Assembly: GCA_023138875.1 (NCBI GenBank)
Contig: JAGLOO010000033.1
Location: 1 to 60,067 of the forward strand
Source: Bacteroidales bacterium
Lineage (GTDB): Bacteria; Bacteroidota; Bacteroidia; Bacteroidales; GCA-2748055
Direction: 5' to 3'
Length of the DNA stretch: 60,067 nt
Position 1 is the first letter of the stretch. Every line of letters begins with the position of its first letter. This document shows, piece after piece, positions 46,066-59,677 of this stretch. A program made the translations under genes and the position numbers. The notes under the pieces were generated by a model. It searched no databases and was not told the DNA's origin. It saw only the letters and a list, made by a program, of their open reading frames with translations.

Positions 46066-47460
46066 ATGGGAAAGAAACAGGATGAGCTTTTAAAACGGAT
46101 TCAGAAACTGGTAAAGCAGAACCAGAATCTGTTCGACAAGAATGAGAAACTGCAGAAGGCAGTAACTGAACTGTCCGAGCAGAATGAGATGATGAAGCTG
46201 CGCCTGAAAGAGTCGAAAGTTGAAATAAAGGAGGGCGTTCAGCCGGAGGGTGAGGAGCGGGTGAAGAAATACAATATGGCCACCGTACTTTTTGCCTACA
46301 TCGGCGGATTCAAACAATTGACAGAAGAGGAGGAGTCGGAAGCCATCATTGACCAGCTGGACGAGTTACTGATTGAATTCGACAGGATACTAAAGAAGTA
46401 TAAGATCCATAAGATCAAGACCATCGGCGACACTTACATGGCGGCAGGTGGTATTCCTGTAAAAAATATTACCAATCCCATTGATGTGGTGATGGCGGCT
46501 CTGGAAATGAACATGTTTCTTGATCAGCTTCAACAGGGCAGAGTAAAACAGTTTTGGAACATGAGCCTGGGTATTCATACGGGCCCGGTCACCGCCAATG
46601 TATCCGGAAAGAAGAAAATATCATATGATATCAAAGGAGATACGGTTAACGTTGCCCACCGGATGCAGGGGATTGGTGACAGTGGTAAGATCCTGATCTC
46701 CATAATGACTTATGAACTGATCAAGGAATTTTTCATCTGTGAATATTACGGGAAGATGCCCGTGAAGTACAAAGGGGACCTGGAGATGTTCGTGGTGAAC
46801 GGTATCCGGCCGGAATTCTCACAAGACGGCAAAGGAGCCCTTCCGAATGAACTGTTCGATACCAAATTCAAGTTGATCCAGTTTATTGATATCCAGGAAC
46901 TGGTCCTTGACAAACTGGAGCGCGAATTACCGGATTTTCTCTACTATCACAATGTGAAGCACACAGTAGATGTGGTAACAGAGGTGGAGTTAATAGGCTG
47001 GGCCGAGGGACTGGATGATGATGGAATACTCCTTTTGAAGACTGCAGCGCTGTTTCATGATGCCGGACACACAATCGCATATGATGAACATGAGCATCAT
47101 GGAACGGTTCTTGCCCGGGAATTTCTTCCTAAATACGGGTATACCAAGGAGCAGATAGAGATAATTTGTGACATTATTATGGCCACCAGTCTTCCTCCCA
47201 AACCTGGAGATATTTACCAGAAAATCATCTGTGATGCTGACCTGGATTACCTGGGCAGGAGCGATATGATCCCTGTTTCCAATACCCTTTTCCGGGAGAT
47301 GAAAGGGCAGGACAAGATCGGCACACTCAATGACTGGAATAAACTTCAAATTAAATTCATATCCGGGCATTCCTATTTCACCAAAACAGCCAGGAGCCTC
47401 AGGGAAGTAAACAAACAGAAACAGATTGAGCGTATTAAAAAACTGATTACAGACGATTAA
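46066..47460 (+). CDS. class III nucleotide cyclase-like domain fused to an HD phosphohydrolase domain
   Basis: A 464-residue protein. Residues 1-50 form a coiled coil; ~70-245 a class III cyclase domain; ~265-460 an HD domain. In the cyclase, Lys118 and Asp188 (adenine-type recognition), Asp122 (second metal ligand), Asn195 and Arg199 (transition state) are present. The first metal ligand is lost: VLFADI becomes VLFAYI, with Tyr78 replacing Asp. The HD domain keeps its metal ligands (HNVKHT, LFHDAGH, CDADLDYLGR). It may be a nucleotide-binding regulator controlling a phosphohydrolase, or an enzyme with altered metal use. Standing alone upstream of a secreted unknown. Confidence 0.83.
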   Translation: MGKKQDELLKRIQKLVKQNQNLFDKNEKLQKAVTELSEQNEMMKLRLKESKVEIKEGVQPEGEERVKKYNMATVLFAYIGGFKQLTEEEESEAIIDQLDELLIEFDRILKKYKIHKIKTIGDTYMAAGGIPVKNITNPIDVVMAALEMNMFLDQLQQGRVKQFWNMSLGIHTGPVTANVSGKKKISYDIKGDTVNVAHRMQGIGDSGKILISIMTYELIKEFFICEYYGKMPVKYKGDLEMFVVNGIRPEFSQDGKGALPNELFDTKFKLIQFIDIQELVLDKLERELPDFLYYHNVKHTVDVVTEVELIGWAEGLDDDGILLLKTAALFHDAGHTIAYDEHEHHGTVLAREFLPKYGYTKEQIEIICDIIMATSLPPKPGDIYQKIICDADLDYLGRSDMIPVSNTLFREMKGQDKIGTLNDWNKLQIKFISGHSYFTKTARSLREVNKQKQIERIKKLITDD

Positions 47461-49536: not shown

Positions 49537-49568
49537 TTGAAAATAGGAAAATCAAATATCTATCTTTG
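49537..49568 (+). promoter_or_regulatory. candidate promoter of the polyketide synthase operon
   Basis: TTG (49537-49539) and TATCTTTG (49561-49568) are separated by 21 bases; the -7 element is an exact match. The TTG codon that begins the longest reading frame lies inside this element, so it cannot be the true start. The likely start codons are the ATGs at 49587 or 49602, the latter preceded by AGAGAGAAG. Confidence 0.6.
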
Positions 49569-49601
49569 CCGGACCTTAAATACCAAATGATCAGAGAGAA
49601 G

Positions 49602-52600
49602 ATGGATGGAAAAACGAGAGAGCCTTTAGCAATAGTAGGGATCGGATGCAGATTTCCAGGTAATGTTAGTACTCCCGAAGAGTTCTGGAAATTAATCGTT
49701 GAAAGAGGTGATGCACTGACAGATGTTCCGGCCGATCGCTGGGATGTAAATGCCATGTATGCTCCCGATTTTAAGCAAGCCGGTAAAATTAGTGTCAGAA
49801 GGGGCGGATTCATTAAGGACATTGACAAATTTGATGCATCCTTCTTCGGGATATCACCTATGGAGGCATCTCGTATGGACCCTCAGCAAAGAATGATTCT
49901 TGAGCTCTCTTACGAGGCTGTGGAAAACGCCGGCCTGACTTTAGAAGACCTGGATGGTTCACGTACATCCGTATTCATTGGGATTTCATCTCATGATTAT
50001 GGTGATATCCAAAACGCTCCGGTCGAGCAGGTAAATATAGGAGCACATACCAACCTGGGATCAGCCCTGTGCATTACTGCCAACAGAATTTCATATTTTT
50101 ATAATTTAAAGGGCGTCAGTATGGCCCTTGATACAGCATGTTCATCATCACTAAATGCTGTTCATCTGGCATGCAGAAGTATTTGGGACAAGGACGCTGA
50201 TCTTGCATTCGCGGGTGGTGTCAACTCAATATTAAAACCCGAACCTCAAATGGGTTTTTCCAAAGGGGGATTTCTTTCTCCTGATGGTAAATGTTATGCT
50301 TTTGATTCCCGGGCTAACGGGTATATAAGGAGTGAAGGAGCCGGATTGGTAATCATCAAACCCCTTTCCCGTGCAATAGAGGATAATGACATAATCTATG
50401 CTACTATCAGGGGATCCGGCGTTAATCAGGATGGCACAACAAATGGGATATCAGTCCCCAATTCCATTGCCCAGCAGGAAATGATTCAAATGGCGTATGA
50501 AGATGCCGGGGTAGATACCCAGCATGTAAAATACATTGAAGCCCATGGAACAGGAACCTTTGTTGGTGATCCCATTGAAGCAATCTCTATTGGGAAAATT
50601 GTAGGAGCCAACCGCAAGGAAAAATTCTATATAGGTTCCGTGAAAACCAATATTGGCCACCTGGAGCCTGCATCAGGTATTGCAGGGATTATTAAGCTGG
50701 CCCTTGCCATGCAAAACAGGATCATTCCTCCAAACATACATTATAGAAAGCCAAATCCAAATATTCCTTTCGATGAATTGAAGCTTGATGTGCCTGTTGA
50801 ACCGATGAAATGGGAAAATGAGAAAAATGGAAGTGTCTATGGAGGAGTAAACAACTTCGGTTTTGGCGGTTCTAATGTACATGTTGTGCTGGAAGGAATT
50901 GGGAAAAAAAAGGAGACTGAGCGGGCAACAAAAGACCGACTTCAAATATGTACACTCTCAACCAGGGATACTGAAGCCCTGCGGGAACTGGTGGAATCAT
51001 ATATAACCTATTTTCAGGATAGGAACAACAAGACAGGTCTGAATGATATATGTTATTCATCAGCAGTGCGCAGGACACAGCATAACAACCGTTTGTCTGT
51101 CGTAGCCGGATCAAAGAAGGAGATGGCAGATCATCTTCAAAAGTATCTTGATGGAGAAAATCTCAGCGAAGTCTCAGAAGGACGGAGCAATGAAGTCAAG
51201 GATAAAATAGTTTTTGTTTTTTCAGGCCAGGGACCTCAATGGTGGGCCATGGGCCGGCAATTGCTGGAAAATGAGCCTGTTTTCACGGAAACAGTACACA
51301 AGCTGGATAAGCTTCTCAGTAAACATGCTGATTGGTCTTTGATAGAAGAACTTACAAAAGAGGAGGAGGCATCCCGGATCAGTGAGACAAATATTGCACA
51401 ACCAGCCATATTTGCAATTCAGATCGCTCTCTTTGAGATGTGGAAGACATTGGGTATCAATCCGTCAGCTGTAGTCGGACACAGCATTGGTGAGGTGCCT
51501 GCCGCGTATGTATCCGGGGCTCTGACATTGGAACAGGCTGTACTGCTCATATTCCACAGAAGCCGGGTACAGTTTAAGGCCACTGATAAAGGAAGAATGC
51601 TGGCTGCCGGATTACCCATAGCAGAAGCAACCAGTTTGATTCAGGGTCGTGAGGAAAAAGTTTCCATAGCTGCCGTCAACGGCCCTGCCATGGTTTCCCT
51701 TTCAGGCGACACGGATGTTATTGAGAAAATTTCTGAGGAGCTCGAAAAGAAGGATGTTTTTAACAGGGTGCTGCAGATCAACGTTCCATTTCATTGTCAC
51801 CATATGGAGCCTCTGAAGGAGGAGCTGCTCACCTCCTTGAATTCATTAAAACCTTCAGCTACCAGGATCCCGTTTTATTCCACAGTGACTGGATTGGTTA
51901 TGGATGGCAAGAAACTGGATAACAGGTACTGGTACCGCAACGTAAGGGAAACAGTCAATTTTGCCGGTGCGATTGAGGAATTGATCAATGATGGTTTCGA
52001 TACCTTTATTGAATTGGGGCCTCATCCTATTCATGCCCTGGGGATCAATGACCTGCTTGCTGCAAGGCAGAAAAAGGGACTCGTAATTCCCTCGATCAGG
52101 AGGAATGAAGAGGAGAAACGTATTTTTCTCTCTTCCCTGGGGATGCTCCATACCTGGGGATGTAAAGTGAATTGGAAAGCTTGTTTTGGAGATAATAAGT
52201 TTGTCCGTCTGCCTGCATACCCCTGGCAAAAAGAGCGGTACTGGCTGGAGACTGAAGAAGGAAGACAAGTGCGTCTGGGTTCCTTTGTCCATCCTCATCT
52301 GAAACGGAAAACCATTTCAGCAAGAGAGAACCACAACATCATCTGGGATATCGACCTGGATAAAAGGACCCGTCCATATATAGATGATCATAAAGTACAG
52401 GGACCCATCATATACCCGGGAGCCGGACATGTAGAACTGGCTATCTCGGCGGCATTGGCTTCATTTGGCGAGAAGTTTGAATTCCTTGAAGATCTCAATT
52501 TTGAAAATGCATTGTTCCTTCCTGATTCCGGTGAACCGGTATTTATTCAAATGGATATATCCCATGACGGAGGTGACTATTTTATTTACTCAAAGCCAAG

Positions 52601-55600
52601 AAGTGAAAATGCTTCCTGGACCATGTGTTCCAATGGTAAGATGAATCATATAAAAGATTCATTTAAATCCATTGAGGTTGATTTTAAAGAAGTCCGGAAA
52701 CGGATAACGGTTCCTGTTCCGGTAAAGGCTCTGCATGATGAACTTCTCGAAAGCGGACTCTATCTTGGTCCGAGTTTCAGGGCTATCAAACACTTGTGGA
52801 GAAGTGAAAATGAATGGGAATCTTTCAGTGAGATAGAGGTGCATGAAAGCATCCGTTCCGAGTTCTTCCAGTTCAATCTTCACCCGGGAGTTCTGGACAG
52901 TTGCTTCCAGACCGTATTCGGAATATTTAACACCGGTGAGGAATCGGACAGGAAAATGGGTGTCTATATCCCGGTTCATATTGACAGGATAAAGTTCCAT
53001 AAAAAACCCAATTCCTTTAAAATGTTTGTCTATGGCAGGTTGAGGGAATGGACGGATGAATATGCACTGGGCGAATTGGTTATTTTTAATGAAGATGGAG
53101 AGACTATTGCTGAATTCCAGGGCTTCCGCTCACAATATCTGAAAGGGTCCAGGGGAGAGACAGCAGGCGAACAGGAAAAATGGTTTTATGAGTATAACTG
53201 GAGCATGAAATCCAGGTCGGACCAGGAACTTGTCCGTAATCCGGGTGATTACTTACCTTCTCCCAATGCCATCAGGGCGAGCGTTAATGAGACCATCCGG
53301 GAGATAAATGCACTCCCCGAACAGGCTGAGTATTATGAAAATTACGAGCCCCGGCAATACAACCTTACCATAGGATATATCTGCAATTCCCTGAGAGAGA
53401 TGGGAATGCCTTTCATTGCCGGGACTAAAGTCAATATCAGTAACCTTATTAAAGAATTTGGCGTGATCAGCGATCATCACCGCCTGTTTTACCATATATT
53501 CAATTTACTGAAAAAGGCCGGAATTGTGGAGGGCGACCAGGATGATTACGTAGTGATTAAAACTCCTGATTTCAGGGATCTTAAATTATGGATCGATGAA
53601 ATCAATGAACAGTATCCCCAGTTTCGTCATGAAACAACATTGCTGGGCCGTTGCGGACCTGAGATTTCAGGGGTATTGACAGGAGAAGTGGATCCGATCC
53701 AATTGATTTTCCCGGAAGACCAGTGGGATCTGATCGTCAATTACTATGTTGAAGGTTTTGCATTTAAGAAATACAATGATCTTGCTGCCCGTGTTGTTTC
53801 AGAATTGATACATGGTATTCCTGAAGACCAAACACTTCGCATTCTTGAAATAGGTGCAGGCACAGGAGGCATGACACAGGCTGTCCTGTCATTGCTGCCT
53901 TCCGGCCGAACAGAATACTACTATACAGACGTTTCCCATGTTTTCATGCTTAAGGCACAGCAAAGGTTTGCCAGGTATCCCTTCGTACAATATAAATTAT
54001 TGGATATCGAGAAGGATCCGGCTGAACAGGGATTTGACATCAATTCATTTGACCTGGTTATTGCATCTGATGTGATACATGCCACCCGCAATCTTAAAAC
54101 AAGTTTCGGGAATGTGAAACGACTGCTTGCATCCGAAGGAATACTGCTCATGCTGGAGGTAACCAATTCTCCCGTTTACCTCGATTTTATCTTTGGGATG
54201 ACTGAAGGATGGTGGTTATTCGAGGATACGGATATCCGGCCTGATCATGCTACAATGAGTCCAGACAGGTGGAAAAAAGTGCTTGAGCGTGAGGGATTTT
54301 CAGATGTTGCGGCTTACAGTGACTTTAAAAATAATGATTCTTCCTGTCAGAGTGTGATTCTTGCCCGGAATACGAAGCTGGATCTGACCAACAAAGCACT
54401 GGAGGATTCACCAAAGCTTGGCAAGGCAGATTGGCTGGTCTTCGCTGATGATAAGGGTGTGGCTGATATCATACAGTCCAGACTGGCTGCCATTGAGAAA
54501 CAATCTTACATGGTCAGACGTGGCGAGGGTTTTACTAAAATCAAAGAAACTGAGTTTGAGATTGATCCAAAGAGCCAGGATCATGTAAAGAGGTTGATTA
54601 ACCTGGTTGCTGAAAAGGGTAATTTCCAGGGAATCATTTTCTTATGGGGACTGGATTCGGCTGCGAACGAGCAACTTAATATAGATAACATCATTCAGGC
54701 AGAAGACCATTCTTCACTTGCGATGATGAATATAATGAAACAATTGAATGCCACCAATTACGAGAAGAATCCCGAAATCTGGATGATAACTGGTGGTGCA
54801 CAATCGGTTGGGGGAACACCTGAAACAGTTCAGCTGTCCCAGGCCGGACTGAGGGGTGTGAACAGGGTGATTATCAATGAATTTCCTGTTTTCAATTCCA
54901 CCATGGTCGATTTCAGTAATCCTGTGCGGGAGGAAGAGATTGATGCATTTATCGAAGAAATAGTGGCAGGTGATAACGAGGATGAGATCGCTTTCAGGGG
55001 TAAAAAACGTTTTATTAACAGGCTGGAAAGGATCTCCACCGATAATATTGCACAACGTGCTCTGCGAACATTGTCCGCCGGCGATTTGCCATTCACTCTG
55101 ACCATCGATGAGTATGGAGTCCTCGATAACCTGGTAGTCAGGGAAACATCCCGCAGGCTACCCGGTGATGATGAAGTGGAGGTCAGTATCAAAGCATCTG
55201 CTCTTAATTTTCGCGACATCATGCTCTCTATGGGACTGCTTTCAAATGATGCCATCAACAGGGGATTATTCGGAAGGACCATGGGACTGGAATGTGCCGG
55301 AATCGTCACTGCTACAGGAAAGAGTGTTAAGGATGTAAAGGTAGGTGATGAGGTTATGGCAACTGCTCCGTCCTGCCTGGGTAACTTTGCCTATCCAAAG
55401 GCCTGCCATGTTGTTCAGAAACCCGGAAACATAAGCTTCCCCGAAGCCGCAACCTTGCCTGTGGTTTATGTCACCGCGTATTATTCCCTGGTACATCTCT
55501 GTCGCATCAGGAAAGGGGAGAGGATACTTATTCATGCGGCGGCCGGAGGCGTTGGTGTTGCTGCCATACATATTGCCAATGCTGCAGGTGCCGAGATATA

Positions 55601-58010
55601 TGCGACGGTGGGTAGTGAAGAGAAAAAAGCTTACATCGAAAGCATAGGAGTCAGGTCTGATCATATTTTAAACTCCCGTACACTGGAGTTTGCCGACCGC
55701 CTTATGGAACTGACCGGCGGAGAAGGTGTGGATATCGTTCTCAACTCACTTTCAGGAGAAGCTATATTTAAGAGTATCAGATGCTTATCGCCTTACGGAA
55801 GATTTGTAGAGATTGGCAAGACCGATATTTACCGCAACAGCAAGCTTGGACTGCAGCCATTTGGTAATAACCTGTCCTATTTTGGAGTAGATGTAGACAG
55901 ACTTTTCAAACAGAAGGAGAAATTCAGCGGTGAACTGTTCCAGGAAGCCATTGATTTCTTTGTTGATAATACATTCCCTGCACATCCATCCGTAATTTAC
56001 CCGATGTCGGAGATCAAGGATGCTTTCCAGTACATGGCAGGAGCCAGGCACATTGGCAAGATCATTATAAGCATGGAAGATGATGTTAAGGTGGCTCCAC
56101 CCAAGGAAATCCGGTTTAAGGGTAATGCATCATATATGCTGACAGGCGGATGTTCGGGATTTGGACTTGCCGTTGCCGATTGGATGACAACGAAGGGAGC
56201 CAGAAACCTTGTGCTGATGAGCAGGTCAGGTCCCAAGACCGATGATGAGAAAAAGATCATTGACAATATGCGTGAAAGGGGAGTGAACGTGATGATCGCA
56301 AAAGGGGATGTATCCATCCGGGATGATGTGGACCGGATTATGGATCAGGTTAAGCAAGAAATGCCCCCTCTGAAAGGGATTCAGCATGCTGCAATGGTTC
56401 TTGATGATGGCAGCATACCGGAAATTGACCATGATCGTTATTTGAAGGTTTTTATACCAAAAAGTATTGGTTGCTGGCTGCTGCATGAAGCCACCCTGGA
56501 TATGGAGCTGGATCATTTTGTACTCTACTCGTCCATCTCGTCCGTTTATGGTAATCCGGGACAGGTGAGTTATGTTGCAGGGAACAGTTTCCTTGAAAAT
56601 TTCGCGCAGTTCAGGCGTTCACAGGGAATGACTGCAATGACAATTAACTGGGGTGTTTTGGGTGATGTGGGATTTGTTGCAAGAAGCGGAAATGTGGGCG
56701 GATTGCTTTATAAGCAGGGATGGAAAACCTTTACCTTGAAACAATCTACAGATATCCTGGAGCAAATGTTGCTGACCAATCCGGTTCAGCGGGTAGCGAC
56801 TGATTCTGACTGGGAAATGGTGGGTAATTTTTATCCGCATTCCAGTAAAACAAGCCGTTTTGGCCATCTGATCAATGAAAAGGAGATGTCAGCCGTTTCG
56901 GCAGCCGGGGCTGGAGATGGCGGATTGAAAGCTTCTTTAATAGAATTGAGCAAGGAAGAACAATCTGATATTTTAATAACTCATTTAAGGGATACATTTG
57001 CCAGGGTGCTGGGATCTACGGCCGATAAGGTTGATCCTGCAGAACCAGTTACCAAATATGGTCTGGACTCCTTGATGGCAAATCAACTCAGGAACTGGAT
57101 CCAGAGCAGTGTGTCGGTGGATTACTCCATGATGCGAATCATGAAAGGTCCAACCCTTCAGGAAATGACAGAACAGATCCTGGATGAACTCAATGGTCAG
57201 CTCAGTGGCGGGGATGGCCAGGGAGAGGAGAAAGCGGAACTGGATAAATGGGTACAGCGTTCGAAGAAGATTGATAATCCGAGAATGCGACTCTTCTGTC
57301 TTCCCTATTTTGCCGGAGGTGCTTCTGTTTACAGTACCTGGCATGAGTATTTACAGGACGGAATTGAGGTATGTGCCATTCAATACCCGGGGCGCGAAGA
57401 GCGCATGGGTGAAAAACCAATTGACAATTATCTCGATCTGGTCAAAGCGATCTCAGATGTTATCGATCCATTATTAAATTGTCCGGTTGCATTCTATTGC
57501 CATAGTGCCGGGGCAGGCATCGGACTGGAACTGGCGAGATATCTGAGAAGGGAAAAGGGCATTCAACCTGTTAAATTTATCGTTGGCGGATGGCGGTCAC
57601 CTCACCTGGTGAGTCCCTTTAAATTTCTGGATGCCATTGAGGATGATGAGGTTTATATGGATAAGAATATTCCTAATATTCTCAACCACCTGAGATCACT
57701 TGAGATCCCTGAGTCAGTACTTCAGAATGAAGAATTGATCGAAGAGATGCTCCCGGCCCTTCGTGCCGATATACTCCTGGGTAAACGGTATAGATACTAT
57801 GAAGATGAGCCCCTGAATTGTTCACTAACCGCTTTTGCGGGGAAGGACGATACTGTTTTTTCCGCGGAGCAGGTCAAGGAATGGAAGAAACATACCTCAG
57901 GTGAATTCAGGTTCATCAGCGTGAATGGTGGTCATCTTTTCTGCAGGGATAACAAAGAAGAGCTCCTGGCATTAATAACTGAGGAATTAATGGAATATGC
58001 CAATGCCTGA
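49602..58010 (+). CDS. single-module highly reducing type I polyketide synthase (KS-AT-DH-MT-ER-KR-ACP-TE)
   Basis: A 2802-residue synthase (positions from the ATG at 49602). KS ~8-430: Cys180 in DTACSSS, His315, His353. AT ~537-830: Ser628 in GHSIGE. DH ~895-1185: His930 (DDHKVQG) and Asp1099 (HPGVLDS). C-methyltransferase ~1230-1590: LEIGAGTGG. A structural KR-like part, then ER ~1830-2160 with HAAAGGVGVAA. KR ~2170-2390 with TGGCSGFG and Tyr2324. ACP with Ser2490 in GLDSLMAN. TE ~2560-2800 with CHSAG (Ser2635), Asp and His2778. All catalytic residues are intact, so an iterative synthase making a methylated, reduced chain released by the TE is expected. The product is unknown. It overlaps the transferase gene. 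Confidence 0.93.
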   Translation: MDGKTREPLAIVGIGCRFPGNVSTPEEFWKLIVERGDALTDVPADRWDVNAMYAPDFKQAGKISVRRGGFIKDIDKFDASFFGISPMEASRMDPQQRMILELSYEAVENAGLTLEDLDGSRTSVFIGISSHDYGDIQNAPVEQVNIGAHTNLGSALCITANRISYFYNLKGVSMALDTACSSSLNAVHLACRSIWDKDADLAFAGGVNSILKPEPQMGFSKGGFLSPDGKCYAFDSRANGYIRSEGAGLVIIKPLSRAIEDNDIIYATIRGSGVNQDGTTNGISVPNSIAQQEMIQMAYEDAGVDTQHVKYIEAHGTGTFVGDPIEAISIGKIVGANRKEKFYIGSVKTNIGHLEPASGIAGIIKLALAMQNRIIPPNIHYRKPNPNIPFDELKLDVPVEPMKWENEKNGSVYGGVNNFGFGGSNVHVVLEGIGKKKETERATKDRLQICTLSTRDTEALRELVESYITYFQDRNNKTGLNDICYSSAVRRTQHNNRLSVVAGSKKEMADHLQKYLDGENLSEVSEGRSNEVKDKIVFVFSGQGPQWWAMGRQLLENEPVFTETVHKLDKLLSKHADWSLIEELTKEEEASRISETNIAQPAIFAIQIALFEMWKTLGINPSAVVGHSIGEVPAAYVSGALTLEQAVLLIFHRSRVQFKATDKGRMLAAGLPIAEATSLIQGREEKVSIAAVNGPAMVSLSGDTDVIEKISEELEKKDVFNRVLQINVPFHCHHMEPLKEELLTSLNSLKPSATRIPFYSTVTGLVMDGKKLDNRYWYRNVRETVNFAGAIEELINDGFDTFIELGPHPIHALGINDLLAARQKKGLVIPSIRRNEEEKRIFLSSLGMLHTWGCKVNWKACFGDNKFVRLPAYPWQKERYWLETEEGRQVRLGSFVHPHLKRKTISARENHNIIWDIDLDKRTRPYIDDHKVQGPIIYPGAGHVELAISAALASFGEKFEFLEDLNFENALFLPDSGEPVFIQMDISHDGGDYFIYSKPRSENASWTMCSNGKMNHIKDSFKSIEVDFKEVRKRITVPVPVKALHDELLESGLYLGPSFRAIKHLWRSENEWESFSEIEVHESIRSEFFQFNLHPGVLDSCFQTVFGIFNTGEESDRKMGVYIPVHIDRIKFHKKPNSFKMFVYGRLREWTDEYALGELVIFNEDGETIAEFQGFRSQYLKGSRGETAGEQEKWFYEYNWSMKSRSDQELVRNPGDYLPSPNAIRASVNETIREINALPEQAEYYENYEPRQYNLTIGYICNSLREMGMPFIAGTKVNISNLIKEFGVISDHHRLFYHIFNLLKKAGIVEGDQDDYVVIKTPDFRDLKLWIDEINEQYPQFRHETTLLGRCGPEISGVLTGEVDPIQLIFPEDQWDLIVNYYVEGFAFKKYNDLAARVVSELIHGIPEDQTLRILEIGAGTGGMTQAVLSLLPSGRTEYYYTDVSHVFMLKAQQRFARYPFVQYKLLDIEKDPAEQGFDINSFDLVIASDVIHATRNLKTSFGNVKRLLASEGILLMLEVTNSPVYLDFIFGMTEGWWLFEDTDIRPDHATMSPDRWKKVLEREGFSDVAAYSDFKNNDSSCQSVILARNTKLDLTNKALEDSPKLGKADWLVFADDKGVADIIQSRLAAIEKQSYMVRRGEGFTKIKETEFEIDPKSQDHVKRLINLVAEKGNFQGIIFLWGLDSAANEQLNIDNIIQAEDHSSLAMMNIMKQLNATNYEKNPEIWMITGGAQSVGGTPETVQLSQAGLRGVNRVIINEFPVFNSTMVDFSNPVREEEIDAFIEEIVAGDNEDEIAFRGKKRFINRLERISTDNIAQRALRTLSAGDLPFTLTIDEYGVLDNLVVRETSRRLPGDDEVEVSIKASALNFRDIMLSMGLLSNDAINRGLFGRTMGLECAGIVTATGKSVKDVKVGDEVMATAPSCLGNFAYPKACHVVQKPGNISFPEAATLPVVYVTAYYSLVHLCRIRKGERILIHAAAGGVGVAAIHIANAAGAEIYATVGSEEKKAYIESIGVRSDHILNSRTLEFADRLMELTGGEGVDIVLNSLSGEAIFKSIRCLSPYGRFVEIGKTDIYRNSKLGLQPFGNNLSYFGVDVDRLFKQKEKFSGELFQEAIDFFVDNTFPAHPSVIYPMSEIKDAFQYMAGARHIGKIIISMEDDVKVAPPKEIRFKGNASYMLTGGCSGFGLAVADWMTTKGARNLVLMSRSGPKTDDEKKIIDNMRERGVNVMIAKGDVSIRDDVDRIMDQVKQEMPPLKGIQHAAMVLDDGSIPEIDHDRYLKVFIPKSIGCWLLHEATLDMELDHFVLYSSISSVYGNPGQVSYVAGNSFLENFAQFRRSQGMTAMTINWGVLGDVGFVARSGNVGGLLYKQGWKTFTLKQSTDILEQMLLTNPVQRVATDSDWEMVGNFYPHSSKTSRFGHLINEKEMSAVSAAGAGDGGLKASLIELSKEEQSDILITHLRDTFARVLGSTADKVDPAEPVTKYGLDSLMANQLRNWIQSSVSVDYSMMRIMKGPTLQEMTEQILDELNGQLSGGDGQGEEKAELDKWVQRSKKIDNPRMRLFCLPYFAGGASVYSTWHEYLQDGIEVCAIQYPGREERMGEKPIDNYLDLVKAISDVIDPLLNCPVAFYCHSAGAGIGLELARYLRREKGIQPVKFIVGGWRSPHLVSPFKFLDAIEDDEVYMDKNIPNILNHLRSLEIPESVLQNEELIEEMLPALRADILLGKRYRYYEDEPLNCSLTAFAGKDDTVFSAEQVKEWKKHTSGEFRFISVNGGHLFCRDNKEELLALITEELMEYANA

Positions 58011-58743
58011 TGTTCTAATTTTGAATCAACCTGATACAGAGTATTTTCCAAATCTGTTGAAAGGGGATATTCATCTTTGGACCATCTCGCTTGATACTTC
58101 AGAAGATCAGATTGAACGCTTGCGATCAGTTTTGTCTCCCGCAGAAAAAAAGAAAGCATCTTATTACAAATTTGAGCCCATACAGCATCATTATATAGTA
58201 ACCCAGGCTGTTTTAAGGATGCTGCTATCCGCTTATCTGGATATAGGACCTGCGGATATAAAAATGGGAGCTCACAAAAAGGGTAAACCATTCCTTGTGA
58301 ATGATGCTTCAATTTTTTACAATATTTCCAATTCACATGATCTCTGTGTTTATGCATTCTCGCGCGATGGAGAAGTGGGGGTCGATATTGAAAAAATCCG
58401 GGATATGCCTGACATCGACCAGCTGATTGAAAAGAATTTGACAATCCGTGAAAGAAAGTATTTCCAGAAAGATACTGATATCAAGTTAACCAGGTTCTTT
58501 CAATTCTGGACCTTTAAGGAATCTTATCTGAAGGCCATCGGAGAAGGGATGCGACTCACACCGGAAAATCTTGAATTTTCACTGGAGAACGGAACGATCA
58601 GGCTGCGATTTGTTAAGTACGGATTTGATGCCGCAGACTGGCAGTTCAAAGGTTTTACCCGTGAGGGGAACTACACAGGTGCGCTCGCATATACAGGTAA
58701 AGAAACTGTCATCCGGGAAATGAGTATTGCTTTAAAACGTTAA
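57997..58743 (+). CDS. Sfp-type 4'-phosphopantetheinyl transferase
   Basis: A 248-residue transferase that would convert the apo-ACP of the synthase to its active form. The metal-binding motif VGVDIEKIR and the downstream FWTFKESYLKAIGEGM (Trp, Lys-Glu, Lys) are the Sfp signatures. The N-terminal ISLDTSEDQIERLRSVLSPAEKKKASYY also fits the family. The ATG at 57997 overlaps the last 14 bases of the synthase gene (another ATG is two codons later), so the two proteins are translationally coupled. The dedicated partner makes a role in activating this synthase very likely. Confidence 0.93.
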   Translation: MPMPDVLILNQPDTEYFPNLLKGDIHLWTISLDTSEDQIERLRSVLSPAEKKKASYYKFEPIQHHYIVTQAVLRMLLSAYLDIGPADIKMGAHKKGKPFLVNDASIFYNISNSHDLCVYAFSRDGEVGVDIEKIRDMPDIDQLIEKNLTIRERKYFQKDTDIKLTRFFQFWTFKESYLKAIGEGMRLTPENLEFSLENGTIRLRFVKYGFDAADWQFKGFTREGNYTGALAYTGKETVIREMSIALKR

Positions 58744-58981
58744 TTATCTGAACTGCTGAATAGAAAGAGAAATAAGAGTATGCTTTTGGATTGTGAACAC
58801 TCATCCCTTTTATCACTTATCATAAGACGTATCTTACCGTGGGATAACCATGAAATTCACACGCCTCTCACCCTACTTCAGCCAATATCTGCTATAGAAA
58901 TTACATATACCTCAGCTCCACGAATATCAATATGCCAATTTTGTGGCAATAAGTGTATGTTATATTAGAAACGATGAAGGT

Positions 58982-59677
58982 ATGAGTTTACGAAAAGATC
59001 TGTTTTTTCTACTTGGGATCGTAACCTTTTTTCTCCCGTTTTTTGTCTTCAACGAAGTATTTGAAGCTTATTATCAATTCAACCTGGAGCATGGAGTGCT
59101 GATGAGCTTTATCAAGTTTTCCATTCTGGCAACACTGGGCGAAGTCATTGGACTCAGGATTAAGACTGGCAGCTATCATCAAAAAGGATTTGGACTGATC
59201 CCGCGTGCCATTGTTTGGGGATTTCTTGGAGTTACCATTCATATGGCTTTTGCGATTTTCGCAGCCGGAACACCTGTTTTTCTTGAGAAGGTAGGCTTTA
59301 AGGATGCAGGCAGTATACTGCATTCGGATCTGAGCTGGAAGAAAGTACTTGTTTCATTCAGTATTTCTACTGCACTGAATCTTTTCTATGCTCCTGTGAT
59401 GATGACTTTCCATAAAATTACTGATATTCATATTTTGGAAAATGGCGGAATGTTGCAAGGATTTTTTAAGCCTATACATTTTGCCCGGATATTTGAAGAA
59501 ATTAACTGGGATGTTCAATGGAATTTTGTGTTTAAGAAGACCATTCCACTTTTCTGGATCCCTGCACAAACAGTAACATTTTTGTTACCAGAGGAATTCA
59601 GGGTGCTGTTTGCTGCCTTCCTTGGTATAGTTTTGGGTGTGCTGCTTGCTATTGCGGCATTGAAGAATTCTGCATAA
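58982..59677 (+). CDS. membrane protein, possibly Mpv17/PMP22-like
   Basis: A 231-residue protein with four or five hydrophobic segments, starting at 58982 (MSLRKDLFFLLGIV). The C-terminal part (WDVQWNFVFKKTIPLFWIPAQTVTFLLPEEFRVLFAAFLG) resembles the end of the Mpv17/PMP22 family, which has the same Trp, Lys, Pro-x-x-Trp, Asn/Thr-Phe, Pro and Arg order. Resemblance is from memory and the match is loose. It lies 238 bases after the transferase gene, on the same strand; whether it belongs to the polyketide locus, for example in export or membrane response, is not shown. Confidence 0.55.
   Translation: MSLRKDLFFLLGIVTFFLPFFVFNEVFEAYYQFNLEHGVLMSFIKFSILATLGEVIGLRIKTGSYHQKGFGLIPRAIVWGFLGVTIHMAFAIFAAGTPVFLEKVGFKDAGSILHSDLSWKKVLVSFSISTALNLFYAPVMMTFHKITDIHILENGGMLQGFFKPIHFARIFEEINWDVQWNFVFKKTIPLFWIPAQTVTFLLPEEFRVLFAAFLGIVLGVLLAIAALKNSA

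What the first reader, a model, noticed from the sequence alone, without database searches (positions are those of the whole stretch)
49537..59677. Fungal-style highly reducing iterative polyketide synthase with in-cis thioesterase in a bacteroidete-type genome
Seen directly: one reading frame carries KS, AT, DH, C-methyltransferase, ER, KR, ACP and TE with every catalytic residue present, and the Sfp-type transferase gene overlaps its end by 14 bases. Known: this order is that of fungal highly reducing synthases, which work iteratively; bacterial type I modules usually come as multi-module assemblies or lack the MT. Inference: the locus makes a single, reduced, methyl-branched chain such as a lipid or fatty-acid-like polyketide, with no tailoring genes except perhaps the downstream membrane protein. 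This is the strongest candidate for an undescribed system.
Basis: partly seen in the sequence, partly recalled or inferred. Interest (0 to 1): 0.9.

Follow-up and report, generated by a model that had tools for sequence, protein, structure and literature searches.

The report
Bacteroidota lone-module branched-lipid synthase cassette
A single giant bacterial enzyme, carrying every part needed to build, methylate, fully reduce and release a fatty-acid-like chain, sits next to the gene for its own activating enzyme and recurs in uncultured Bacteroidota; it is laid out like fungal and mycobacterial lipid synthases but its sequence is bacterial, and its product is unknown.

Summary
One intact frame (2814 aa) carries KS-AT-DH-MT-psiKR-ER-KR-ACP-TE with catalytic residues present; a PPTase gene overlaps its end. 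It is the only type I PKS found in the genome, so iterative use (or one extension) is inferred. 'Fungal-style' holds for layout only: the closest solved KS, MT and TE sequences are bacterial, with lovastatin LovB well below. A tree puts the protein in a 22-row clade (100/100): 18 Bacteroidota rows, one Chitinispirillaceae, one Planctomycetota, two cultured Persicobacteraceae (also Bacteroidota). The Planctomycetota and Persicobacteraceae copies lack the MT. The PPTase neighbour is kept in 22 of 26 loci; the third gene (Mpv17-like) is not. In 8 of 11 sister-group loci an acyl-CoA synthetase follows; in 5 of 11 a PlsC-type acyltransferase is near; neither is near in the window's own subgroup. 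Most likely it makes a reduced, alpha-methyl-branched fatty acid, released by the TE and re-activated for lipid assembly (inferred; no product known). Mono-modular bacterial PKSs are already known (MAS, SupA, SwfA, PfSgaA), so this is a new variant of a known kind. Two cultured relatives make it testable.

The parts
49537..49568 (+). promoter-like site TTG-N21-TATCTTTG (Bacteroidota -33/-7 type, consensus recalled)
   Evidence: 3 matches in window, mean 0.89 expected, 5 of 100 shuffles reach 3; weak
49587..58010 (+). type I PKS gene (likely ATG start; frame from TTG 49566)
49620..51086 (+). KS domain with C-terminal extension; Cys192, His327, His365
51210..52163 (+). AT domain; GHSIGE, VPFH motif (malonyl-type Phe)
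52290..53141 (+). DH domain; His942, Asp1111
53319..54308 (+). C-methyltransferase with N-terminal HTH_51 part; closest solved relative CurJ MT; His1505/Glu1531 (catalytic role recalled)
54435..54950 (+). structural (pseudo-)KR part (Beta-ketacyl_N, PF21394; reading as pseudo-KR recalled)
55164..56069 (+). ER domain; NADPH motif GGVG
56127..56660 (+). KR domain; Lys2299, Ser2322, Tyr2336, Asn2340; LDD motif
56985..57173 (+). ACP; GLDSL, Ser2502
57288..57980 (+). C-terminal thioesterase, RifR-like; Ser2647, Asp2762, His2790
58003..58743 (+). 4'-phosphopantetheinyl transferase (alternative upstream ATG 57997)

Best explanation
It is a self-contained mono-modular, iterative, highly reducing type I PKS of bacterial descent. 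The overlapping, presumably co-transcribed PPTase loads phosphopantetheine onto the ACP (inferred from adjacency). The AT loads malonyl units (inferred from the VPFH motif), the KS extends, the MT adds alpha-methyl groups, KR/DH/ER reduce (shown: domains and residues present; inferred: which cycles use them), and the cis RifR-like TE hydrolyses the finished chain to a free alpha-methyl-branched fatty acid (inferred). In sister-group loci this acid is probably re-activated by a neighbouring acyl-CoA synthetase and put into lipids by a neighbouring acyltransferase (inferred from neighbourhood); the window genome has an acyl-CoA synthetase and its GNAT partner elsewhere. Primer, chain length and methylation pattern are unknown.
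For: Domain set and residues. Only type I PKS found in the 4.79-Mb, 99.6% complete genome; the three other hits are FabF-, FabD- and dehydrogenase-sized, so no partner module was seen and ordinary type II FAS enzymes seem to exist alongside. Clade of 22 rows at 100/100 with the same order except for the MT. TE nearest RifR, then other type II-like thioesterases. PPTase next to the PKS in 22 of 26 loci, and PKS and PPTase identities covary (15 of those 22 loci compared, r = 0.67, 0 of 5000 permutations). Acyl-CoA synthetase within 3 kb downstream in 8 of 11 sister-group loci with at least 5 kb downstream; PlsC-type acyltransferase near 5 of those 11; GNAT protein near 3 of the 11 and in L005. 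Window genome: synthetase (53% to the L018 one) and GNAT (58%) adjacent on contig C7.
Against: No product is known for any member seen here. The acyl-CoA synthetase is not near the PKS in the window's subgroup (0 of 5 loci with at least 3.8 kb downstream) nor in L011, L012, L034 (nor L009, 2.6 kb). A match to the window genome's synthetase (E up to 1e-100) occurs in 24 of 28 family genomes, 18 of them without a PKS hit, so it is general lipid metabolism and not PKS-specific. No match to the PlsC neighbour was found in the window genome (the tool warns that such an empty answer by itself shows nothing). RifR-type TEs often edit rather than release (recalled). The PPTase is not adjacent in 4 of 26 loci.
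Confidence: 0.6

Rival explanations
1. MAS-like chain extender: the synthase takes a long acyl primer made by the type II FAS and adds a few methyl-branched units, rather than building the chain from acetate.
For: Mycobacterial MAS is the best full-length PDB hit (1014 bits); FabF- and FabD-like hits show that a type II FAS is probably present.
Against: MAS lies outside the clade in the KS tree, though on a long branch; MAS reads VASH at the AT motif, a methylmalonyl type, and has neither MT nor cis TE (recalled); the window AT reads VPFH and an MT is present.
Confidence: 0.22
2. Secreted secondary metabolite: a partly reduced polyketide (pyrone, alcohol or lipid antibiotic) released by the TE and exported.
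For: Patchy distribution even within the genus (7 of 18 genomes, many of them incomplete) and shifting genomic sites, as for accessory metabolites; RND efflux genes within 10 kb upstream in L023 (Pfam) and, by clustering with these, L008 and L056; TetR regulators upstream in L018 and L056 (Pfam) and, by clustering, L019.
Against: The reductive domains keep catalytic residues in the clade rows inspected, L024 apart; no tailoring or export gene is recognised next to the PKS in the window; the most frequent neighbours after the PPTase are lipid-activation genes.
Confidence: 0.22
3. Member of an already described mono-modular family (SwfA, WcbR/RkpA, PfSgaA, SupA).
For: Same general idea: single complete module, presumed iterative, linked to unusual lipids.
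Against: SwfA hallmarks are absent: the window has DPQQR, HGTGT, VPFH, GHSIGE and an MT, against DPQ(I/V), HATGT, IAFH, GHSSGE and no MT. An oxoamine-synthase-like query from L104 matched only L104 among the loci searched. The capsule-cluster PKS of L104 falls outside the clade. SupA could not be tested.
Confidence: 0.08
4. Non-functional or decaying gene.
For: One relative, L024, has lost KS Cys, DH His, KR Tyr and ACP Ser and its frame ends early, so decay does occur in the clade.
Against: The window copy is open over 8.4 kb with all residues looked for kept, and orthologues are kept full length at about 63-85% identity.
Confidence: 0.03

Closest known systems
Mycocerosic acid synthase (MAS)
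   Same: mono-modular, iterative, reducing, methyl-branched acyl chains (recalled); best full-length PDB hit
   Different: VASH at the AT motif, no MT or cis TE (recalled); outside the clade in the KS tree
SupA of sponge symbionts
   Same: small mono-modular PKS proposed to make mid-chain-branched fatty acids (passages, passages)
   Different: reported from sponge metagenomes; sequence not available here, relation untested
SwfA of sponge symbionts (PMC3908369)
   Different: KS-AT-DH-ER-KR-ACP without MT or TE, different KS/AT motifs, operon with reductase-sulphotransferase and radical SAM proteins
PfSgaA, P. fluorescens MYb115 (PMC12134224)
   Same: bacterial iterative type I PKS making lipid chains (sphinganines)
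   Different: paired with an oxoamine synthase; the window PKS is paired with a PPTase and ends in a TE
Fungal highly reducing PKS (LovB, 7cpx)
   Same: domain order KS-AT-DH-MT-psiKR-ER-KR-ACP (order recalled)
   Different: low sequence rank for KS and MT; here a RifR-like TE is fused
Animal fatty acid synthase
   Same: similar overall order including C-terminal TE (recalled)
   Different: KS about 300 bits against 446 for PikA1; MT motifs kept here; TE RifR-like, though a medium-chain FAS thioesterase is also hit
Persicobacter psychrovividus and Aureibacter tunicatorum plasmid PKSs (L101, L102)
   Same: same clade, same kind of TE, PPTase next door
   Different: no MT domain; 43.8 and 41.9% identity

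Membership tests
Highly reducing iterative type I PKS (functional class) | one module with KS, AT, DH, MT, ER, KR, ACP | tested here: met
Highly reducing iterative type I PKS (functional class) | iterative use of the module | not testable with these tools
   inferred from finding no other type I PKS in the genome
Fungal HR-PKS (by descent) | KS and MT closest to fungal HR-PKS | tested here: not met
   LovB 29th of 73 for KS; MT closest to CurJ, fungal citrinin PKS second, LovB seventh; no fungal KS could be put in the tree
MAS family | methylmalonyl-type AT motif, no MT | tested here: not met
   VPFH versus VASH in MAS; MT present
SwfA | DPQ(I/V)R, HATGT, IAFH, GHSSGE, no MT | tested here: not met
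   window DPQQR, HGTGT, VPFH, GHSIGE, MT present against features in PMC3908369
PfSgaAB / WcbR-RkpA | oxoamine synthase or capsule genes next to the PKS | tested here: not met
   only the window and held loci were searched
SupA | KS inside the Sup clade | not tested
   no SupA sequence at hand
22-row clade | monophyly | tested here: met
   100/100, SH-aLRT 97 for KS alone
22-row clade | RifR-like TE with Ser-Asp-His | tested here: met
   23 rows inspected: Ser in 21 of 22 rows holding the region (one X), Asp and His in 22 of 22; L024 lacks the region
22-row clade | adjacent PPTase gene | tested here: met
   met in the window; 22 of 26 loci, missing in L009, L012, L023, L056

The most novel reading that the evidence does not exclude
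A transferable two-gene cassette gives Bacteroidota a second, eukaryote-style one-polypeptide fatty acid synthase, complete with its own activating enzyme and release enzyme, that makes alpha-methyl-branched acyl chains for membrane or surface lipids alongside the normal type II pathway; it has moved between orders and phyla, and it exists in MT and MT-free forms that would give branched and straight products from one scaffold.
Probability: 0.3. Interest if true: 0.72.

Novelty: new variant of a known kind. Interest (0 to 1): 0.5.

Why it matters
Which bacteria make methyl-branched acids of this kind, and with what enzymes, is only partly known (recalled); the sponge-symbiont PKSs proposed for such acids come from metagenomes. 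This clade offers a compact enzyme-plus-activator pair with a built-in release step, and two relatives lie on plasmids of named strains (NBRC 101262, NBRC 107587), so a product can be sought directly. The MT-containing and MT-free forms are a natural comparison for how methylation is programmed.

Tried and rejected
Three-gene block: rejected. The Mpv17-like gene has matches in 12 of 28 family genomes, own included. Of the six other PKS-bearing ones, G003, G007, G012 and G013 have it on a contig other than those with PKS pieces, and G002 and G008 have no match. A search of the fetched PKS loci found it only in the window's own. Fragmented contigs limit this.

Chance or assembly artefact: rejected.

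Fungal origin: rejected on PDB ranking. No fungal KS could be put in the tree, because only the top alignments are printed.

Acyl-CoA synthetase as a PKS-specific partner in the window genome: weakened. Matches are in 24 of 28 family genomes, 18 of them with no PKS hit, and a related synthetase is in 32 of 99 phylum genomes.

Structure of the GNAT neighbour: the job was accepted and was not finished in any of the collecting calls (89, 91-94, 96-102); its profile has no PDB sequence match.

Rows dropped: duplicates of the same contigs (L081-L087, L099; L001 is the window) were left out of counts. Of 101 KS domains extracted (at most two per locus), 27 were left out of the KS tree, chosen by eye as near-duplicates or second KSs; L035, a likely clade member, was among them. 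The full-length set was 49 proteins, a chosen part of the loci; L005, L014, L034, L038 and L070 were then left out as truncated or gappy. The search for related loci kept the best 80 of 137 relatives (76 loci), so more distant kin are unseen.

Literature: ten searches of open-licence PMC papers listed no title that describes this clade; subscription papers are not held, so absence from print is not shown. Seen: PMC3908369 (abstract, first fifth, sections 8 and 15, passages); PMC4245539, PMC9864124, PMC12134224 (passages). All others: listing only.

Full report
WHAT IS THERE. The frame at 49566-58010 encodes 2814 aa without a stop. Pfam gives KS-AT-DH-MT-psiKR-ER-KR-ACP-TE. Of 107 NCBIfam models matched, the 25 shown all stay below their cut-offs; the best are type I PKS and mycobacterial lipid PKS models. 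The Pfam list adds two details: an HTH_51 part in front of the MT, and a KR-like structural part between MT and ER. The next gene is a PPTase (best NCBIfam model HetI, below cut-off). The contig ends 2.06 kb after the PKS stop. G+C (0.448 for the two genes against 0.453 upstream) shows no foreign signature.

GENE STARTS. The TTG start lies inside a Bacteroidota-type promoter-like site (49537-49568), so ATG 49587 is more likely; the match is weak statistically (consensus recalled). For the PPTase, ATG 57997 gives the reported 14-base overlap, but ATG 58003 gives 8 bases, the value at the first ATG in L005, L006, L007, L014, L015, L020, L033 and L043; L008 overlaps by 1 (8 of 9 other loci of the subgroup). 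In some of these a TTG lies further upstream.

ONLY ONE. In its own genome (4.79 Mb, 87 contigs, 99.6% complete) the protein matches itself, one FabF-like KS, one FabD-like AT and one dehydrogenase. No second module was seen, so iteration or a single extension is inferred, not shown.

RELATIVES AND SPREAD. A scan of genome contigs gave 137 relatives, best 80 kept as 76 loci. Identity to the window protein over aligned residues: 80.9-88.1% for seven near relatives; 56.2-69.4% for thirteen other Bacteroidota rows (62.9% or more without the decayed L024); 51.1% for a Chitinispirillaceae; 48.4% for a Planctomycetota; 43.8 and 41.9% for two Persicobacteraceae. In whole genomes, hits were found in 7 of 28 of the family, all in the window's genus (7 of 18) and 0 of 10 in other genera; many of these MAGs are incomplete, and among those at least 90% complete and at most 5% contaminated it is 3 of 10. 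In the order sample 3 of 295 hit, of which two (own and G548, 83%) are of this type. In the phylum sample 11 of 395 hit, only the own genome at more than 38% identity. The gene is rare and patchy.

TREE. With KS alone (79 rows, quick method) the window falls in a 22-row clade (SH-aLRT 97), with PikA1, CurL, MAS, Pks13 and the 7zma KS outside; four rows, three of them references, have long branches. With 1916 columns from KS-AT-DH and psiKR-ER-KR (44 rows, careful method, LG+G4) the same 22 rows form a clade at 100/100, with a Ramlibacter MAG protein as sister at 99/99. The program warned that letter make-up differs in many rows. Inside, the place of L023 is weak (80/27). The MT is absent in L056, L101 and L102.

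RESIDUES. Among 23 clade rows inspected: KS Cys in 21 of the 22 rows with the region (Gly in L024); AT Ser, Arg and His in 23 of 23; DH His and KR Tyr in 22 of 23; ACP Ser in 22 of 23; the MT glycine in the 20 rows with an MT. The exceptions are all L024. The Asp aligned at 2280 (LDD motif) is replaced in L024, L056 and L102. The AT reads VPFH in all 24 rows that cover it; Phe at this place goes with malonyl, and CurL reads HAFH and MAS VASH (the rule is recalled, and PMC3908369 uses IAFH in the same way). So methyl groups should come from the MT and not from methylmalonyl-CoA. L024 looks like a decaying copy.

WHERE THE PARTS COME FROM. KS: PikA1 446 bits, CurL 434, Pks13 394, DEBS about 369, MAS 346, LovB 343 (29th of 73), animal FAS about 300; the first-ranked 7zma sums two KS domains of 307 and 339 bits. 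MT: CurJ 245, fungal citrinin PKS 166, DisA 158, AprA 144, LovB 116. TE: RifR 115, other thioesterases of that kind, a medium-chain FAS thioesterase 79. Over the full length MAS leads (1014), then a DEBS-RifR chimera (841), Pks16 (786), other modular constructs, LovB 724, FAS 681. 'Fungal-style' is therefore a matter of layout.

NEIGHBOURS. PPTase next to the PKS: 22 of 26 clade loci that hold the PKS end and at least 450 bases beyond (L007 partial; L017 in two frames; L022 after a 207-base gap); missing in L009, L012, L023, L056. PKS and PPTase identities covary (15 of the 22 loci compared, r = 0.67, 0 of 5000 permutations). An acyl-CoA synthetase (AMP-binding, PF00501 in L018) lies within 3 kb downstream in L010, L013, L016, L017, L018, L019, L021, L022: 8 of 11 sister-group loci with at least 5 kb downstream; misses L011, L012, L034, and L009 with 2.6 kb; 0 of 5 window-subgroup loci with at least 3.8 kb. 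PlsC-type acyltransferase: L010, L013, L016, L021, L022. GNAT-like protein: L005, L017, L018, L019. Chitinispirillaceae L023 has a GH3 gene downstream; a listed abstract (PMC12493201) ties a GH3-like enzyme to ornithine lipids in planctomycetes. The window genome holds a synthetase-GNAT pair on contig C7, with a CrtD-like oxidoreductase next, but matches to this synthetase are in 24 of 28 family genomes, so it is not a PKS marker.

MOBILITY. The order UvrB-endonuclease-cyclase is kept in 11 of 11 relatives' cyclase loci fetched (of 27 relatives), three of which (G003, G008, G012) have the PKS on other contigs. In G011, where no PKS was found, the cyclase and Mpv17 genes are 13 kb apart with other DNA between, which I did not annotate. 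PKS loci of relatives have mostly unshared neighbours, and in the tree MAGs labelled Bacteroidales and Flavobacteriales are intermixed (L011 with L013, 100/100; MAG labels may err). This fits a moved or transferred two-gene unit; no mobility gene was identified, and a clean empty site was not shown.

MECHANISM. Shown: domains, residues, gene pairing, clade. Inferred: co-expression, malonyl use, methylation, full reduction, hydrolytic release, re-activation and lipid assembly.

COMPARISON WITH THE KNOWN. Mono-modular bacterial reducing PKSs are described: SwfA and SupA in sponge symbionts, with WcbR/RkpA as their comparison group, PfSgaA for sphinganines, and MAS (recalled). The window enzyme works like these but fails the tested SwfA, MAS and PfSgaA features; SupA is untested. 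I file it as a new variant of a known kind: a clade with a RifR-like cis TE, in most members an MT, and in most loci a neighbouring PPTase gene.

Noticed in passing
L101, L102: Persicobacter psychrovividus pPP1 (1.07 Mb) and Aureibacter tunicatorum pAT1 (0.62 Mb) carry MT-free members of the clade with an adjacent PPTase: named strains in which the product could be sought.
   Followed up: partly
L024:1371-8789: Flavobacteriales copy that seems to be decaying: KS Cys, DH His, KR Tyr and ACP Ser are replaced and the frame ends within the ACP region.
   Followed up: partly
L052:9917-20064 and L038:9950-18569: Ramlibacter MAG and Nocardia colli PKSs with a similar TE, each followed by an FAD oxidoreductase; the two look alike by eye, and the Ramlibacter one matches tryptophan halogenase in Pfam: possibly a separate family. 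In L038 no full KS domain was found in the DNA held; in L052 the aligned TE Ser is Cys.
   Followed up: partly
L088, L089, L091, L093-L095: Bacteroidota genomes of two families carry frames of about 3400 aa with two KS domains, about 30% identical to the query; not examined further.
   Followed up: no
L113:5884-10340: Window genome contig C7 has a row of acyl-CoA synthetase, GNAT-like protein without a PDB sequence match, and CrtD-like oxidoreductase; relatives of the first two recur next to the PKS in other genomes.
   Followed up: partly
window 46066-47460: Adenylate/guanylate cyclase fused to an HD domain, with matches in 28 of 28 family genomes (E up to 1e-60; in a few genomes only a 41-45% match, perhaps a paralogue).
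   Followed up: no
L061, L029, L042, L044, L055: Planctomycete and verrucomicrobial relatives end in other parts after the ACP: condensation-like (L061), reductase-like (L029, L042) or another thioesterase type (L044, L055), read by eye; a similar lone-module core seems to be paired with different release parts.
   Followed up: no
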